Shown here in pieces: positions 7,452 to 22,829 of a DNA stretch of 26,220 nucleotides. The first letter of the stretch is position 1. Every line of letters starts with the position of its first letter. Origin of the DNA: a virus; the IMG/VR virus record IMGVR_UViG_3300046002_003145, positions 1-26,220 of that record; one strand, given 5' to 3'. The notes under the pieces are model-generated. The model did no database searches, had not been told where the DNA came from, and worked only from the letters and a program-made list of their open reading frames with translations. A program made the position numbers and the translations under genes.

Positions 7452-9152
7452 TTATAATGTTGTGTTAAAAATAACAATATCACCAGTCATATCATTACTA
7501 GGTGCGTATTGAGAATTAAATGTTGATGTGCCTAAAGCCACAGAATTATATGGTTGAACTCTTGATGTAAGAGCAGTATAAACAGAATTATTATATGGGG
7601 TAAAATCTACCAACGATGATGTGGTAATACCTGTGTGTGAATATACATAATCATAATAAGTTGTTCCACTATTATAAGTAAAACCTGTATAATATAGAGT
7701 TTGATTTGGAACTCTAATAGGTGTTGCCCCATCTATACCAGATGTCCCTGATGAACCACTAGTTCCTGATGTTCCGCTTGCTCCAAGTGTTGCTAAAATT
7801 ATCTTATGATTATTTGAGAATTGTGGATTACCACCAGCACTTACCAAAGATACGGGGACTTCCCAATAATTACTTGCTCCTACTATTTGTGTTGTCGCAC
7901 CTGTTATATTCCATACTTGATAATTCGCACTATCGTTTTGGTCTTGAATTGTAATCTGTTGTCCTACTTGTAATAAAGCCAAGAATATATCTATATCTGT
8001 TATTGGCGTGTCTGTAAGATGGTTGATGTTGATTTCGGTTGATGCGGTCATCGTAATATTATTCCAAAGAATATGTCCGTTGCCAGGATTACCTGATTGT
8101 GCGTTGTCCTTTGCTTCATAATAAAAGACACTTGAAGATACACCATTTATACCGCTAGTTCCTGAAGAACCACTTGTTCCCGAAGACCCTGATATTCCAA
8201 TACCAGATGTTCCTGAACTACCTGATGAACCATCTACCCCACTAGTTCCTGAACTACCACTTGTTCCTGAAGACCCCGCACTACCTGATGAACCACTAAT
8301 ACCACTAGTCCCCGAACTACCATCTGTTCCTGATGTTCCACTAGTTCCTGAACTACCACTTGTTCCTGAAGAACCAGCACTACCTGATGTTCCACTACTT
8401 CCACTTGTTCCTGATGAACCAGATGTTCCTGAAGAACCATTTACCCCACTCGTACCTGATGAACCACTTGTTCCTGAACTACCTGATGCTCCAATAACAT
8501 CTTCTCGTAATACCTTATAAGTTATTGTCTCACCTGAATTATTCATAATGAAATAAGCCCCTGTTGTGTCGCCAGTATAAAGGGGTAATTCACTTATTTT
8601 AAGATTGCCTGGTGGAACAACTAACGGCATCTGTTGATATATTACAGGCTCATAACTTTCGTTGTTTATAATGTCCCCATTTTCGTATAACAAATAAAAT
8701 GCGTCCTCAATATAAGGGGGAATACAAGATGTCTGTTCTACTTGAATTGTAATTGTTGCCTCAATACCTACAACACTTTCCTTGAACCTATCGTTAAAGG
8801 GTGCGTATTGAACTGGCATTTGTAAGTAAAAACCATATTGAGTAAGTTGATTGATAAATGTATCAATAAAGTCATTTAAGATTTGTTGAGTTAAAGACAA
8901 ACTATCTAATTGATTACTCAACTCTGGCTCACCCGTATATTCATTTAACTTGTCGTAAATTAAACAAGTAAAATTATATGATGTTAATGTATTATCTATT
9001 GTTGATGGTTGGGGAACAAAGTGTATCGCAGGATACTCTGTGATATATGTGTCTCTTGAATAATCCGATAAATTACCCCAAGAAAAAGTTCGTAGCATCG
9101 GGTGTTGTGATGCGAATACCTTGAATATTTTTATAATGTCTATGTAGGTCAT
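7452..9152 (-). CDS. Tail protein with collagen-like Gly-X-Y stalk
   Basis: 566 residues. Residues 1-145 form a compact domain (YIDIIKIFKVFASQHPMLRT; YPAIHFVPQP) like a small structural or tail-completion domain I know from Bacteroidota phages. Residues 183-220 contain GNLKISELP and GAYFIMNNSGETITYKV, a motif often preceding glycine repeats in phage fibre proteins. Residues 221-338 are collagen-like, with glycine every third position and Ser/Thr elsewhere (GSSGTSG units). A second short tract lies near residues 455-475. The C-terminal part is beta-rich. The gene starts three bases after the stop of the -1 frame coding stretch. It probably forms a trimeric fibre or stalk, which is inference from the repeat. 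Confidence 0.8.
   Translation of the reverse strand: MTYIDIIKIFKVFASQHPMLRTFSWGNLSDYSRDTYITEYPAIHFVPQPSTIDNTLTSYNFTCLIYDKLNEYTGEPELSNQLDSLSLTQQILNDFIDTFINQLTQYGFYLQMPVQYAPFNDRFKESVVGIEATITIQVEQTSCIPPYIEDAFYLLYENGDIINNESYEPVIYQQMPLVVPPGNLKISELPLYTGDTTGAYFIMNNSGETITYKVLREDVIGASGSSGTSGSSGTSGVNGSSGTSGSSGTSGSSGTSGSAGSSGTSGSSGTSGTSGTDGSSGTSGISGSSGSAGSSGTSGSSGTSGVDGSSGSSGTSGIGISGSSGTSGSSGTSGINGVSSSVFYYEAKDNAQSGNPGNGHILWNNITMTASTEININHLTDTPITDIDIFLALLQVGQQITIQDQNDSANYQVWNITGATTQIVGASNYWEVPVSLVSAGGNPQFSNNHKIILATLGASGTSGTSGSSGTSGIDGATPIRVPNQTLYYTGFTYNSGTTYYDYVYSHTGITTSSLVDFTPYNNSVYTALTSRVQPYNSVALGTSTFNSQYAPSNDMTGDIVIFNTTL
8138..8494 (-). repeat. DNA repeat tract encoding GSSGTSG units
   Basis: This stretch repeats a short unit on the plus strand (close to ccacttgttcctgaa) many times with small changes. 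It encodes residues 221-338 of the collagen-like protein. The internal repetition also creates a spurious open frame rich in Val and Gln. Slippage or recombination here would change the length of the stalk. Confidence 0.8.
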
Positions 9153-9154
9153 TA

Positions 9155-9460
9155 TTACTTTTTGTTTGATTGTTGTTTTTCTTTATTTGACTTATCAATC
9201 CTATACGATAAATACCCCAACACCTCGTTCAACTCTAATTTTAAGACACTACCAATATTTAAGATATTGTCTTGAGCGCACAACATAAGGGATTGATAAT
9301 AGAAATCCACTACAGATTGTATTACTTCTTGAGGAGTGCTTTTTTCTTTTTCTCTATCTCTTGCTTCATCTCGTTCGTCTTGTTCTCCATAGATGATAGT
9401 ATAGTTTCCATAAGTTTCTCGCCGAAAACTGCTAAAAAAAAAAGGGCTGATAAGACAGAT
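9155..9460 (-). CDS. -1 frame extension of the tail-chaperone-like gene, probably reached by programmed frameshift
   Basis: The frame one base back from the gene at 9322-9924 is open from 9460 to a TAA at 9155-9157, where the next gene's ATG follows at 9152. Beyond the frame-0 stop it gives a protein-like sequence (STPQEVIQSVVDFYYQSLM, then LKLELNEVLGYLSYRID), and it has no suitable upstream ATG. In frame 0, ten consecutive T (9443-9434) followed by A form the slippery heptamer T TTT TTA at 9439-9433. A second candidate is the A-rich run at 9351-9340, just before the frame-0 stop. Slipping at either site gives a 256-residue fusion instead of 200 residues. A single missing T in the assembly is the main alternative. 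Confidence 0.65.
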   Translation of the reverse strand: MCLISPFFFSSFRRETYGNYTIIYGEQDERDEARDREKEKSTPQEVIQSVVDFYYQSLMLCAQDNILNIGSVLKLELNEVLGYLSYRIDKSNKEKQQSNKK

Positions 9461-9924
9461 TTAACAGGGAACTTTCTAAACTCGTGTTCTCTTGAAGCAC
9501 ACTCATCTAAAGAATAAGAAATCAATTCTCTATTATCCCCATACTTATTACTCGTAATTGGTTTGTATAAATGTGTTGCCAGTTTAACAAGGTTCAACGG
9601 CTTCTCTGCCATAAATACTTCCAAGTTAATCCACTCCTCATAAGAAATCTTTGAGGGGATAATTAAACCATATTTCTTTTCGTTAAAAACTACTACTTGA
9701 TGTAATGGTTCTATATCATCTTGTGCTGCCCAATCAGACATCAACATCTTTGATACAAACTTTACATCACTAAACGGGGCTGACTTTATTTCATCTACCG
9801 GTGCTCCTGTTAATAGATGGATTAGTTCATAATCTTTTAACTCCTTATTTGTCTGTAAGAGTTCATATTGTTCTATGGTTAAACTTTTAACCAGGTATTC
9901 TTTCTTATCTAATACTACTTTCAT
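9322..9924 (-). CDS. Tail-assembly-chaperone-like protein (frame 0 product)
   Basis: 200 residues. The N-terminal 110 residues are a mixed alpha/beta domain (KVVLDKKEYLVKSLTIEQYE). The middle part reads YSLDECASREHEFRKFPVK, followed by a hydrophobic helix (VLSALFFLAVFGEKLM, about 156-171) and a charged coiled-coil tail ending in KKKKALLKK. Its size, its position among tail genes and the -1 frame continuation suggest the two-product chaperones (lambda G and GT type) that act on the tape measure during tail assembly. No tape measure is visible here; it may lie beyond the left edge. The frame-0 protein is secure; the chaperone role is inference. The gene follows the large terminase by 11 bases. 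Confidence 0.7.
   Translation of the reverse strand: MKVVLDKKEYLVKSLTIEQYELLQTNKELKDYELIHLLTGAPVDEIKSAPFSDVKFVSKMLMSDWAAQDDIEPLHQVVVFNEKKYGLIIPSKISYEEWINLEVFMAEKPLNLVKLATHLYKPITSNKYGDNRELISYSLDECASREHEFRKFPVKSVLSALFFLAVFGEKLMETILSSMENKTNEMKQEIEKKKKALLKK
9433..9439 (-). promoter_or_regulatory. Candidate -1 slippery heptamer T TTT TTA
   Basis: In frame 0 the codons read CTT TTT TTT TTA. The last seven bases are in the correct phase for a canonical X XXY YYZ slip site, where both tRNAs re-pair perfectly with UUU after moving back one base. It lies inside a ten-T run (9434-9443), so transcriptional slippage is also possible. Confidence 0.5.
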
Positions 9925-9935
9925 ATCTATACATT

Positions 9936-11111
9936 TTACATAAACGAATATTTCGTCTTTGATTTATTACTCATCTCCATTACCACATATCTCATACTAT
10001 CTATTAAGTGGTCTTGTCCTGCCGTCTTTGATGTAATCCTACCACTTCTGTCCTTGAACCATTTGTAGTTTTTCATCTCATCTATAAGATTAGTTGATGT
10101 TGCGTCAATTTGTATCTTATATTTCTTTAACTCTGTTATACCAAATAATACTGACCCCGCTTCTTTCTTTACCCCTCGTGCTTTATTCCACTTTCGTTTC
10201 TTTAACTCATCTATCATTCGGGGTTCTGAACTATCACATATTAAATCAAATGACTTTTGTACTCCTGTGTCGTCTAACTTGTAGGCAATATCATCTGTGG
10301 TAAGTCCCTGTTCGTAAAACAATTCTTTAACATAAAGGATATTATCTGGCTCGTTTATCAATACTAACACACAAGCACAAGGGTCAGAGGAATAACCCCA
10401 GTCCAATCCAATACCTAACATCTTTGAGTATCGTGGTGCTTCACTAACAATACTCCAATTCATAAATATTGTTTCTCTTGGTTTAACCTTCTTTCCTAAA
10501 GCATATATCTCATATAGTTCGGGGTCAATATCTTTTAAGTCCTCTATGGCTTTAACAACTGACTTTTCTAAAAAAGGATTTTGTTTATAAGTTGATATGA
10601 TTAGTTGTGCTTCATCTTTCTCTTCCATTTGATAAACATACCAGTCATCTTGTTCTGATGGGTTATAATCACATATCATAAACCCTGTTGTTCTAATATC
10701 TAATTGTAGGAATGCGTCTTGTGATACTGATGTGATTTCATTTATGAAAACTATATCTTGTTTCATTCCGCGAAGCTTACCACTATTATCATCGGCTCCT
10801 AAAAATCTAACCATACTACCATTATCAAATCTATAAATCACTTCTGACTTATTAAACTTGTCGGGGCTGTATAATCCCATTTGGTTCATAACCTCTTGAA
10901 AGTCAATTAAAACTGAATTACGAATTGATACTAATGTATCTCTAACGATTGTTATTGTTGTCTGTGGATTTTGTAATGCGTATAGAACAAGGTAAGATAT
11001 TGTCTGGTAGGTTTTACCAGAACGAGATGAACCCCTCAAGAAAATATATCTCTTATTTTCTTTAACTGCTTTATCTATGTCTAAATATAATGTTGATACA
11101 CTTACTTCCAT
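9936..11111 (-). CDS. terL: Terminase large subunit (Terminase_3/PBSX type)
   Basis: 391 residues, usual for the family. This is the DNA-packaging motor. It has an N-terminal ATPase with Walker A GSSRSGKT (27-34), Walker B IVFINE (120-125) and coupling motif DYNPS (148-152). The C-terminal RNase-H-like nuclease has candidate acidic residues in LDWGYSSDP (Asp237), ICDSSEP (Asp293) and GQDHLIDS (Asp367 or Asp371). It starts at 11111, downstream of a terminator at 11164-11188, so it probably has its own promoter. It lies more than 4 kb from the small-terminase-like gene, an unusual separation. The next gene (tail chaperone-like) begins 11 bases after its stop. Confidence 0.95.
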   Translation of the reverse strand: MEVSVSTLYLDIDKAVKENKRYIFLRGSSRSGKTYQTISYLVLYALQNPQTTITIVRDTLVSIRNSVLIDFQEVMNQMGLYSPDKFNKSEVIYRFDNGSMVRFLGADDNSGKLRGMKQDIVFINEITSVSQDAFLQLDIRTTGFMICDYNPSEQDDWYVYQMEEKDEAQLIISTYKQNPFLEKSVVKAIEDLKDIDPELYEIYALGKKVKPRETIFMNWSIVSEAPRYSKMLGIGLDWGYSSDPCACVLVLINEPDNILYVKELFYEQGLTTDDIAYKLDDTGVQKSFDLICDSSEPRMIDELKKRKWNKARGVKKEAGSVLFGITELKKYKIQIDATSTNLIDEMKNYKWFKDRSGRITSKTAGQDHLIDSMRYVVMEMSNKSKTKYSFM

Positions 11112-12861: not shown

Positions 12862-12885
12862 TATATTTTAATATAATTCTTTAAT
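12856..12885 (-). repeat. Gene-end/promoter repeat, copy B
   Basis: Second copy of the 30-base repeat at 12461-12490, with one mismatch, spanning the end of the 128-residue module gene and the next -33 box. Confidence 0.7.
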
Positions 12886-13254
12886 TATTTTATCAAACCA
12901 TTTATCTAAATCATAATACCTTGATGATGAACCACTATCACCAATTCCTTCTCCGTGTGCTTGGGGACTATTACCAAATAAAGAACCTTGATGTGATGTT
13001 GGTTTATATGTTCTCTTACTTTGTTTTGTTATAACACCATCATTTAACATATCATCACATACTAGTAAATTAGGAGTGAATCTACCTTTTGTGTCTGGTT
13101 CATTTACCTCATACTTACCATCTGCCGAACCAGTATTTTCATAAGAACTAAATGTGTCGTGATATTCTTTATACCTTCTAATATCAAACTTATCGTCTGC
13201 CTCAAAAGGAATCCTACAATCTGCGAGCCACATTATACCTTTACTGTATCTCAT
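12868..13254 (-). CDS. Stand-alone methyltransferase recognition-module-like protein (copy 2)
   Basis: 128 residues. It shares three blocks with the upstream paralogue: YSKGIMWLADCRIPF (3-17), GRFTPNLLVCDDMLNDG (57-73) and GDSGSSSRYYDLDKWFDK (105-122), with different sequence between them. In one-piece phage DNA methyltransferases the equivalents (GxxxIDxCRIP, GRxPANLL, GDSGSASRFF) lie between the DPPY half and the FxGxG half, the part thought to contact target DNA. Here they form a separate small protein with no catalytic motif. It overlaps the paralogue by 14 bases. A role as a trans-acting specificity subunit for the adjacent methyltransferase is inference; a decayed fragment is the alternative, but its open frame and tight coupling argue against that. 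Confidence 0.7.
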   Translation of the reverse strand: MRYSKGIMWLADCRIPFEADDKFDIRRYKEYHDTFSSYENTGSADGKYEVNEPDTKGRFTPNLLVCDDMLNDGVITKQSKRTYKPTSHQGSLFGNSPQAHGEGIGDSGSSSRYYDLDKWFDKIIKELY

Positions 13255-13606
13255 CTATTACTTTATCAAACCATTTATCAAGGTCGTAGTATCTACTATT
13301 TGTTCCTTTATCACCATATCCTTCCATCTTAAATGTTGCTCCTCCAAAATGTGCTGTATCCCTTGTTGTTTTACCACCTTCACTTATAGATATTTTACCA
13401 TCATTTAACATATCATCACATACCAGTAAATTAGGAGTGAATCTACCTAAACCTGCTTCTCTATCTAATCTCTTAAATCCCCAACCTTGATTATTAGTAT
13501 CCATCTTACCATTATCTCTACCACTTATTCCATTTTGTAATGGGTCAGTTTCAACAAAAGGAATCCTACAATCATCTAACCACATTATACCTTTTGAGTA
13601 TTTCAT
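13241..13606 (-). CDS. Stand-alone methyltransferase recognition-module-like protein (copy 1)
   Basis: 121 residues, paralogous to the following gene. Conserved blocks are YSKGIMWLDDCRIPF (3-17), GRFTPNLLVCDDMLNDG (54-70) and GDKGTNSRYYDLDKWFDK (98-115). The stretches between them (18-53 and 71-97) differ, as expected for target-specificity segments. It contains neither DPPY nor FxGxG. Its ATG overlaps the stop of the methyltransferase gene by four bases (ATGA), so the two are almost certainly translated together. The N-terminus begins exactly where the equivalent segment would leave the core in one-piece enzymes. The link to DNA recognition is inference from remembered alignments. Confidence 0.75.
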   Translation of the reverse strand: MKYSKGIMWLDDCRIPFVETDPLQNGISGRDNGKMDTNNQGWGFKRLDREAGLGRFTPNLLVCDDMLNDGKISISEGGKTTRDTAHFGGATFKMEGYGDKGTNSRYYDLDKWFDKVIDEIQ

Positions 13607-21253: not shown

Positions 21254-22603
21254 TTATAAATATATCGGGGGATAAAGATTAGGGGCTGGATGAGAATTGA
21301 TTACAGTTGTTCCATAACTAGTAGGTGTTCCACTAAATATTGTATTACCATTTGTGGAAGCAGACCAAGTTATACCATCATAAGAATATAATGGAGCATT
21401 TACTGTGGCGGCACTAGCACTATAAATTACTGCCATAACAAACATACTTCCATTCCAAACAATATCATAACCAAATCCTGTAGAACCAATTAAACTTTGT
21501 CCGTTAGGTGAGGCAAACCAATTTATTCCATTATAAGAATATCCCACGCCACGATTACCAGCGGCAGCCCATAATGTTCCATTCCATGCTAAACCTATAG
21601 TATTTCCTGTAAAAATACTATTAGCAGATGTAGCAATACTCCAATTATTACCATTATAAGAATATCCTATTCTATTTGTTCCACTTCCACCACCAACCCA
21701 CATAGTTCCATTCCAAACAACTCTATTTAATGAAATAGTCCAAACACTATTACCATTACTCGTGGCAGACCAAGTTATACCATCATAAGAACGAGCAACT
21801 CTATTATTTGCTCCACTATGAGTTCCACCAGCAACAAATAAATCACTACCATTCCAAGCAATAGTATTCATATAATTTTGGAAATAAGTATTACCATTTG
21901 TAGAAGCAGACCAAGTTATACCATCATAAGAATAATTTATTCTTGATAAAGCACCAGAACTACCAGTAGCAATAGTAAAATATTTACTTCCTGTGAATAT
22001 TAAAGAACCTGGATATGTAGTACCACCGTAAAAATTATTTATATTTGAGTTGATTGATTGCCAATTTATTCCATCATAAGAAGATGTTATTATTGAGGTA
22101 AATGGAGGAGTACTACCAGAATTACCACAAGCATACCATTTTGTTCCATTATATATTATACCACCGACAGTTGTGGAAGTTCCACTAAATAAACTATTAC
22201 CATTTGTAGAAGCAGACCAAGTTATACCATCATAAGAATAACCTAATCTGTTTATCATGTTTCTAGATGCTCCAGCAACAAATAAAGGTATTGGTGTTTC
22301 TCTTGGTGTTGGGGTTATGGTTGGTGTGATAGTATTTGTTGGAGTAATACTTGGTGTATTAGTATTTGTTGGTGTATTAGTTGGTGTTAAGGTAGGCGTA
22401 GGAGTTAAAGTTTTAGTTGGGGTTATGGTATTTGTTGGAGTAATCGTTGGCGTAGGGGTCGGAGTTTTAGTTGGCGTCTGCGTGGGAGTTGCGCTTGGTT
22501 CAGGAAATAAAATTGGTGGTACGAAGCCTCCATAGTTATAGATTTTTCCACCCTCAAAATATTCACTCTCTAATGTCTTGAACTTTTTATTTATTATTGC
22601 CAT
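21254..22603 (-). CDS. Thr/Pro-stalked protein with SYDGITW repeats (propeller-like)
   Basis: About 449 residues, using the second Met as start (the first is one codon earlier). Residues 1-35 form a short head. Residues 37-110 are a Thr/Pro-rich stalk ([10 protein letters not shown] type). Residues 111-440 hold about seven repeats of the form [18 protein letters not shown], followed by a WNGxxWVxxG strand, suggesting a beta-propeller or sialidase-like fold; similar SYDGxxW repeats occur in proteins of large viruses and phages. Three repeats are almost identical at DNA level. It is probably an adhesin or decoration fibre projecting from the particle. The position in the head module, next to the capsid and portal genes, suggests a capsid fibre. 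Confidence 0.75.
21344..21388 (-). repeat. SYDGITW DNA repeat, copy 1
   Basis: 45 bases near-identical to 21890-21934 and 22196-22240 (one difference), encoding [16 protein letters not shown] more diverged copy lies at 21745-21788. Confidence 0.85.
21890..21934 (-). repeat. SYDGITW DNA repeat, copy 2
   Basis: Second near-identical 45-base copy inside the repeat protein gene. Confidence 0.85.
22196..22240 (-). repeat. SYDGITW DNA repeat, copy 3
   Basis: Third near-identical 45-base copy, identical to copy 2 over its length. Confidence 0.85.
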
Positions 22604-22829
22604 CAATTATTCTATGGGTTTTTTCTATTAGTATATCCACATCAACATCTCCCTTCTCATTAAATAAATAACCCCTTGAAAATAGGAGTATATCATTTCT
22701 AAAAAAATCAACATTTATGGTTATGTCTGACTTCTTAAAATCAACAAGCATAGTTTGTATTCTATAACTTGTTATTGGCACATATAAATTATCTCGTCTA
22801 ACTTTGAGATTTTTTATTACTTCTAACAT
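22587..22829 (-). CDS. Small hypothetical protein directly after a terminator
   Basis: 80 residues from [20 protein letters not shown]. An earlier ATG at 22874 exists, but its extra codons would read through the terminator stem, so 22829 is preferred. It contains basic and beta-rich segments ([14 protein letters not shown]) and no recognised family. The ATG lies almost directly after the T-run of the terminator. Its end overlaps the start of the repeat protein gene by about 17 bases. Function unknown. Confidence 0.65.

What the first reader, a model, noticed from the sequence alone, without database searches (positions are those of the whole stretch)
9155..9460. Probable programmed -1 frameshift in the tail-chaperone-like gene
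The -1 frame is open from 9460 to 9155 and continues with protein-like sequence past the frame-0 stop, filling a 170-base gap and ending 3 bases before the next ATG. The slip site T TTT TTA sits in frame inside a T10 run; an A-rich run near the stop is a second candidate. Tail chaperones of other phages use -1 frameshifts, but the family here is not one I can name.
Basis: partly seen in the sequence, partly recalled or inferred. Interest (0 to 1): 0.7.

Follow-up and report, generated by a model that had tools for sequence, protein, structure and literature searches.

The report
Slippery T-run extends phage tail chaperone
A gene next to the phage packaging motor carries a run of ten T's that lets the phage make two proteins from one gene, and hundreds of related phages never let this run fall below nine T's, which points to slipping by RNA polymerase rather than by the ribosome as the usual textbook case would have it.

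Summary
The gene at 9924-9322(-) has a T10 run (9443-9434) and a -1 frame open from 9460 to 9155. Three separately assembled contigs with the same protein also read T10, and 41 distinct diverged relatives keep the run. The -1 frame evolves as a protein and has no start codon of its own before its conserved domain. A deeper family, including cultured Nonlabens phages P12024L/S, was then sampled: 161 of 163 distinct junctions, found without reference to the run, carry T9-T12 and none carries fewer; the two exceptions are motif misassignments and have T9. All three codon registers occur. When the codon upstream of the run loses its T's, the codon downstream gains one (5/5 versus 16/156). So selection acts on a run of at least 9, which is longer than a ribosomal slip heptamer needs, and no conserved RNA structure follows. 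I therefore favour programmed transcriptional slippage (about 0.65) over ribosomal -1 frameshifting. Gene position, weak HK97-chaperone structural similarity and the short/extended layout support a lambda G/GT-like tail assembly chaperone; curated family models did not confirm this. It is a new variant of a known kind. No RNA or peptide data exist.

The parts
9322..9924 (-). Frame-0 gene, 200 aa: short form of the putative tail assembly chaperone (G-like)
   Evidence: ORF; confident AlphaFold model, pLDDT 85.5; best PDB match HK97 tail assembly chaperone 2ob9, weak; directly downstream of the terminase.
9434..9443 (-). T10 slippage run, in frame C TT TTT TTT TT A; at least 9 T's in every relative examined except one T8 assembly
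9155..9442 (-). -1 frame extension (T-like domain, about 95 aa, stop TAA at 9157-9155), joined to frame 0 at the T run to give a 256-aa fusion
   Evidence: conserved motif QSVVDFYYQSLMLCAQDxIL...EVLxYLSYRxDK in the -1 frame in all relatives with a complete gene.
9936..11111 (-). Terminase large subunit (neighbour that anchors synteny)
   Evidence: phrog_2 E 5.6e-40.
7452..9152 (-). Next gene: N-terminal domain matching a separate 150-177-aa gene in relatives, fused here to a collagen-like tail-fibre region; its ATG lies 2 bases after the -1 stop

Best explanation
The gene encodes a tail assembly chaperone in two forms, like gpG and gpGT of phage lambda. Standard decoding gives the 200-aa short form. 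At the T run the RNA polymerase of the host slips on part of the transcripts and inserts one extra U (a nine-base RNA-DNA hybrid made only of A-U pairs can realign). Ordinary translation of those transcripts runs from frame 0 into the -1 frame and adds the C-terminal domain of about 95 aa. The fusion would help the tape measure and tail tube proteins assemble, and the run length would set the ratio of the two forms. Shown by sequence: the -1 extension is a conserved protein domain joined at a T run that never falls below 9 in relatives (one T8 assembly apart). Inferred: that RNA polymerase rather than the ribosome slips, that a single U is inserted, the ratio, and the chaperone role.
For: (1) Run length, not a heptamer, is conserved. 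In an unbiased junction scan 161 of 163 distinct loci have T9 (131), T10 (27), T11 (2) or T12 (1) and none shorter; the two others are motif misassignments and have T9. (2) Over 161 taxa codon 1 base 1 changes 31 times and codon 4 bases 2 and 3 change 20 and 34 times by parsimony, while the T's from codon 1 base 3 to codon 4 base 1 change 0 to 1 times. (3) Compensation: in the 5 sequences (4 origins) where codon 1 does not end in TT, codon 4 begins TT (5/5 versus 16/156, Fisher p 2.4e-5, not corrected for phylogeny), keeping at least 9 T's; GGT...TTG in L110 and GCT...TTC/TTT in L065/L071/L092 do the same. All three registers occur. (4) In the window's own family CTT at codon 161 is 34/34 while other Leu columns use 4-6 codons, with 0 third-position changes against a mean of 10.7. 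(5) Elsewhere in the genes of 23 contigs T runs are depleted the more the longer they are (T6 70 versus 90 expected, T7 13 versus 27, T8 1 versus 5.7, none of 9 or more in a true CDS), while 42 in-frame T TTT TTN heptamers are tolerated. (6) No conserved stimulatory RNA structure: the consensus fold of all 41 downstream regions is empty, and single-sequence z-scores average about -1 with different folds. (7) Literature: slippage runs are generally 8-9 or more (PMC3711429, PMC5009743); E. coli RNA polymerase slips preferentially on poly(T), with insertion above deletion (PMC6260861), which is the direction needed here. (8) Chaperone role: position after the terminase and upstream of a tape measure gene, weak HK97 chaperone fold match, sub-threshold Phage_TAC_7 in 2 of 28 members.
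Against: Every T run of 9 or more also contains an in-frame U UUU UUN heptamer, so ribosomal slippage at the same site is possible and may contribute. Some of the T's are also fixed by the amino acids of the two frames (Phe-Phe; Leu/Phe in the -1 frame). The compensation rests on few events. Length thresholds come from E. coli-type RNA polymerase (one reporter study, PMC6260861, sees slippage from T7 upward), and the host polymerase here is untested. Known tail chaperone frameshifts are described as ribosomal. The chaperone fold match is weak (Z 3.8, 79 residues). One locus (L091) assembles with T8.
Confidence: 0.65

Rival explanations
1. Programmed -1 ribosomal frameshifting at U UUU UUN inside the run, as in lambda G/GT: tRNAs re-pair one base back on the U run, with no RNA made longer.
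For: In-frame U UUU UUU or U UUU UUA is always present. Tail chaperones elsewhere use ribosomal -1 shifts (PMC5009743). In-frame T TTT TTN heptamers are mildly depleted elsewhere in these genomes (42 versus 75 expected), so they may cost something.
Against: It needs only 6-7 T's, yet none of the about 160 distinct junctions has fewer than 9. It does not explain the exchange of T's between codon 1 and codon 4. No conserved downstream structure, and no purine-rich Shine-Dalgarno-like element seen by eye before the run.
Confidence: 0.3
2. Sequencing or assembly error: the true gene has eleven T's and is a single frame.
For: Homopolymers are error-prone; one relative (L091) assembles as T8 where the related L086/L087/L088 have T10.
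Against: Independent assemblies of the same phage agree on T10, and the run gives a -1 frame at T9, T10 and T11 in different lineages because the surrounding codons shift with it. Deposited genomes of cultured phages P12024L/S show the same arrangement.
Confidence: 0.01
3. Phase variation: replication slippage at the run switches the fusion on and off between virions.
For: Long T runs mutate readily, and phase variation by poly-A/T tracts is known (PMC3711429).
Against: All contigs of each phage show the same length and all sampled junctions are in the same off-by-one phase. A phase switch should leave some in-frame fusions among about 200 loci.
Confidence: 0.02
4. Two separate genes: the -1 part is translated from its own start.
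For: The P12024L depositors annotated the part after the frame-0 stop as a separate ORF.
Against: No start codon between the run and the conserved domain in 41 of 41 of the window's family, although conserved codons begin at the run. In the P12024 group an internal ATG exists but the conserved -1 residues (SFRERLRDLYPELY) lie upstream of it.
Confidence: 0.02

Closest known systems
Lambda gpG/gpGT and the tail assembly chaperone frameshift of dsDNA phages (Xu, Hendrix and Duda 2004; review PMC5009743)
   Same: A short form and a -1 extended form from overlapping frames, upstream of the tape measure gene, with the shift near the end of the first ORF.
   Different: No sequence family match; the gene sits straight after the terminase with several tail genes before the tape measure; the slip site is a T run of at least 9, not a GGGAAAG-type heptamer; probably polymerase slippage.
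Programmed transcriptional slippage genes: Shigella mxiE/spa13, Citrobacter tssM1 (A11), Thermus dnaX (A9)
   Same: Homopolymer of 9 or more, one-base change of frame, two length variants, no RNA structure needed (PMC4256274, PMC5009743).
   Different: Here in phage structural genes, with a T run kept across a very wide family.
Nonlabens (Persicivirga) phages P12024L/S, genes P12024L_40 and _41 (phrog_32199 and phrog_38404)
   Same: Full-length profile match including the -1 part (hhalign probability 92.7, E 4.3e-7), same place after the terminase, T9 run.
   Different: About 20% identity; annotated as two hypothetical proteins, with no frameshift noted.
HK97 tail assembly chaperone (PDB 2ob9)
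   Same: Best structural match in the PDB second look (Z 3.8, rmsd 4.0, 79 residues).
   Different: Weak and partial; no sequence similarity.

Membership tests
Phage tail assembly chaperone with -1 extension (lambda G/GT-like) | Two overlapping frames, the second reached by a -1 change of frame near the end of the first | tested here: met
   conserved -1 extension in all relatives with complete junctions.
Phage tail assembly chaperone with -1 extension (lambda G/GT-like) | Gene lies in the tail module upstream of the tape measure gene | tested here: met
   tape measure-like 1062-aa protein a few genes downstream in L081 (PHROG E 2.6e-5), with a syntenic 1122-aa protein in L089 (itself no hit). 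In lambda the tape measure is the next gene; here it is not. The window ends before it.
Phage tail assembly chaperone with -1 extension (lambda G/GT-like) | Sequence match to a curated chaperone family | tested here: inconclusive
   no match above cut-off; Phage_TAC_7 in 2 of 28 members at E 0.018 or worse.
Phage tail assembly chaperone with -1 extension (lambda G/GT-like) | Chaperone fold | tested here: inconclusive
   Foldseek finds nothing significant in the PDB; the VIA second look ranks 2ob9 first, Z 3.8.
Phage tail assembly chaperone with -1 extension (lambda G/GT-like) | Both products needed in a set ratio for tail assembly and absent from the virion | not testable with these tools
   Needs genetics and mass spectrometry.
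Programmed transcriptional slippage | Homopolymer of about 9 or more A or T kept by selection at the frame junction | tested here: met
   at least 9 T in 161/163 distinct junctions (the other two misassigned), with compensation between flanking codons.
Programmed transcriptional slippage | Transcripts heterogeneous in length at the run | not testable with these tools
   No RNA data.
Programmed -1 ribosomal frameshift | In-frame X XXY YYZ heptamer | tested here: met
   U UUU UUN is present, but any T run of 9 or more contains it in any register.
Programmed -1 ribosomal frameshift | Stimulator (downstream hairpin or pseudoknot, or upstream Shine-Dalgarno-like element) | tested here: inconclusive
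   no conserved downstream structure; pseudoknots not modelled; upstream element judged by eye only; not all bacterial sites need one.

The most novel reading that the evidence does not exclude
A very large, mostly uncultured phage family (at least 500 contigs; its cultured members infect Flavobacteriia) makes its tail chaperone pair by transcriptional slippage on a T run held at 9 or more, the first tail chaperone family in which RNA polymerase rather than the ribosome sets the ratio.
Probability: 0.6. Interest if true: 0.78.

Novelty: new variant of a known kind. Interest (0 to 1): 0.66.

Why it matters
The tail chaperone frameshift is a textbook ribosomal recoding event. A family-wide change to polymerase slippage would show that phages conserve the outcome (two forms at a ratio) rather than the decoding mechanism, as with dnaX. 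It gives a simple search rule, a T run of at least 9 with a -1 continuation, for annotating many tail chaperones now recorded as two hypothetical proteins or missed. It can be tested directly in the cultured phages P12024L/S by sequencing transcripts.

Tried and rejected
A-rich run near the stop as the slip site: rejected, -1 conservation starts at the T run. Sequencing error, phase variation and independent initiation: rejected (see rivals). The window's family in cultured phages by tblastn: none; found only through fold similarity to P12024S. Bacterial genomes: none. A2 profile against the P12024L and 6H records: nothing, although hhalign joins A2 with P12024L. The -1 domain alone gives a poor model (pLDDT 62). 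Conserved RNA structure: none found (the upstream part stopped on an error). PDB Foldseek: no significant match. Seven loci first scored as lacking the run were a script artefact: the four inspected (L137, L144, L148, L162) have T9; L139, L143 and L147 were not inspected. In one search, 51 of 252 loci were missed by the motif filter; about 20 of these were covered and all have T9-T10, the rest were not examined. Literature searches found no tail chaperone reported to use transcriptional slippage; only open-access papers were searched.

Full report
WHAT WAS CLAIMED.

OBSERVATION. All coordinates hold. Frame 0 reads GCC CTT TTT TTT TTA GCA over the run at 9443-9434. The -1 stop is at 9157-9155, two bases before the ATG of the next gene at 9152. 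The gene directly follows the terminase large subunit (11111-9936; phrog_2, E 5.6e-40).

NOT AN ERROR. IMG/VR holds three other contigs of the same phage with a 100% identical frame-0 protein, all with T10. Terminase-anchored and alignment-anchored scans gave 41 distinct fusion proteins down to 41-45% identity. All keep an unbroken run: T10 in most, T9 in L065/L068, T11 in L066/L067. One locus, L091, assembles with T8, while the closely related L086/L087/L088 have T10, so this may be an assembly error.

THE -1 FRAME IS A PROTEIN. In the -1-only region differences at codon positions 1/2/3 are 0.294/0.152/0.512. The domain carries a conserved motif, QSVVDFYYQSLMLCAQDxIL...EVLxYLSYRxDK. It ends at or just before the next start, often as TAATG. 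No ATG, GTG or TTG lies between the run and the motif in any of the 41. In L070 the frame-0 tail after the run is only about a dozen residues, so that tail is dispensable.

DEEPER RELATIVES. The window's family has no match in cultured phages or bacterial genomes by sequence. An AlphaFold model of the frame-0 protein (pLDDT 85.5) matched viral models including Nonlabens phage P12024S. In the sister phage P12024L (JQ823123) the gene after the terminase, P12024L_40, ends over a T9 run, CTT TTT TTT TAT, and its -1 frame continues for 86 codons; the depositors annotated the end of it as a separate gene. hhalign joins the two families over 212 columns, -1 part included (probability 92.7, E 4.3e-7). 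Scans from P12024L and relatives reach more than 500 contigs, limited by the tool.

RUN LENGTH IS THE CONSERVED FEATURE. Junctions were located by protein motifs on both sides, without using the run. Of 163 distinct junctions 161 have T9 (131), T10 (27), T11 (2) or T12 (1); the two others are motif misassignments and have T9. The run starts at codon position 1, 2 or 3. Codon 1 is GTT, CTT, ATT, TTT, GAT, GCT, AGT or GTC; codon 4 is TAY, TGG, TGC, TCG or TTN. By parsimony over 161 taxa the variable flanking bases (codon 1 base 1, codon 4 bases 2 and 3) change 20-34 times while the T's from codon 1 base 3 to codon 4 base 1 change 0-1 times. When codon 1 does not end in TT (5 sequences, 4 origins) codon 4 begins TT in all, against 16 of 156 otherwise (Fisher p 2.4e-5; phylogeny not corrected). 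In the window's family codon 161 is CTT in 34 of 34 Leu cases, while other conserved Leu columns use four to six codons, with 0 third-position changes against a mean of 10.7. Elsewhere in the genes of 23 contigs T runs are depleted with length and no T run of 9 or more was found in a true CDS.

MECHANISM. A ribosomal slip needs only U UUU UUN. The floor at 9 matches the length of the RNA-DNA hybrid and the reported threshold of about 8-9 for polymerase slippage (PMC3711429, PMC5009743; PMC6260861 reports a minimum of 7 T's in a reporter). E. coli RNA polymerase prefers poly(T) and inserts more than it deletes (PMC6260861), and insertion of one U gives exactly the -1 frame. No conserved stimulator was found. 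I put transcriptional slippage at about 0.65 and ribosomal frameshifting alone at about 0.3; both may act at the same run. Every run of 9 or more includes a slippery heptamer, so sequence alone cannot exclude the ribosome.

FUNCTION. A tail assembly chaperone is the best reading: two forms by -1 extension, position after the terminase, a tape measure-like gene a few genes downstream in L081, a weak HK97 chaperone structural match and a sub-threshold Phage_TAC_7 match. It works like lambda G/GT; family membership by sequence is not shown.

LIMITS. No RNA, protein or read-level data. Host not established (terminase relatives include phages of Bacteroidota). Polymerase thresholds are taken from E. 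coli. Parsimony counts and the Fisher test are rough. Fifty-one loci were not placed by the motif filter; about 20 of them were checked another way and have T9-T10.

Noticed in passing
L096 23946-24640 (JQ823123, P12024L_40/_41) and the matching genes of P12024S: Deposited as two hypothetical proteins (phrog_32199 and phrog_38404); they should be one gene with a -1 extension.
   Followed up: yes
L091, junction near the T run: Only T8 here, while the closely related L086/L087/L088 have T10; probably an assembly error, but it could be a real variant.
   Followed up: partly
L097 10927-10040 (Flavobacterium phage 6H): The weakly fold-similar gene also has a long -1 frame after its stop, but with a -1 stop close to the T6 run; either another mechanism or a sequence error.
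   Followed up: partly
window 9157-9150 and relatives: In most relatives of the window's family the -1 stop overlaps the next start (TAATG), so translation of the next gene may be coupled to the fusion.
   Followed up: no
window 7452-9152: A roughly 150-aa domain that is a separate gene in L044, L081 and L089 is fused here to a collagen-like GTSGSSG repeat region.
   Followed up: no
L011, L026, L027, L028, L057 between terminase and chaperone gene: Extra genes (DNA methyltransferase-like genes, small ORFs) are inserted between terminase and chaperone in some relatives.
   Followed up: no
window 12868-13254 and 13241-13606: Two adjacent paralogous small genes (MxYSKGIMWLxDCRIPF...) beside a DNA methyltransferase; similar genes follow methyltransferases in L057 and L089.
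   Followed up: no
fusion codons 4 and 239 (window family): Val4 and Leu239 columns show no third-position changes among the majority residue; codon 239 lies near the end of the -1 frame and could overlap a signal for the next gene.
   Followed up: no
window 21254-22606: Thr-Pro repeat followed by repeated [10 protein letters not shown] units: probable tail spike or fibre in the head module.
   Followed up: no
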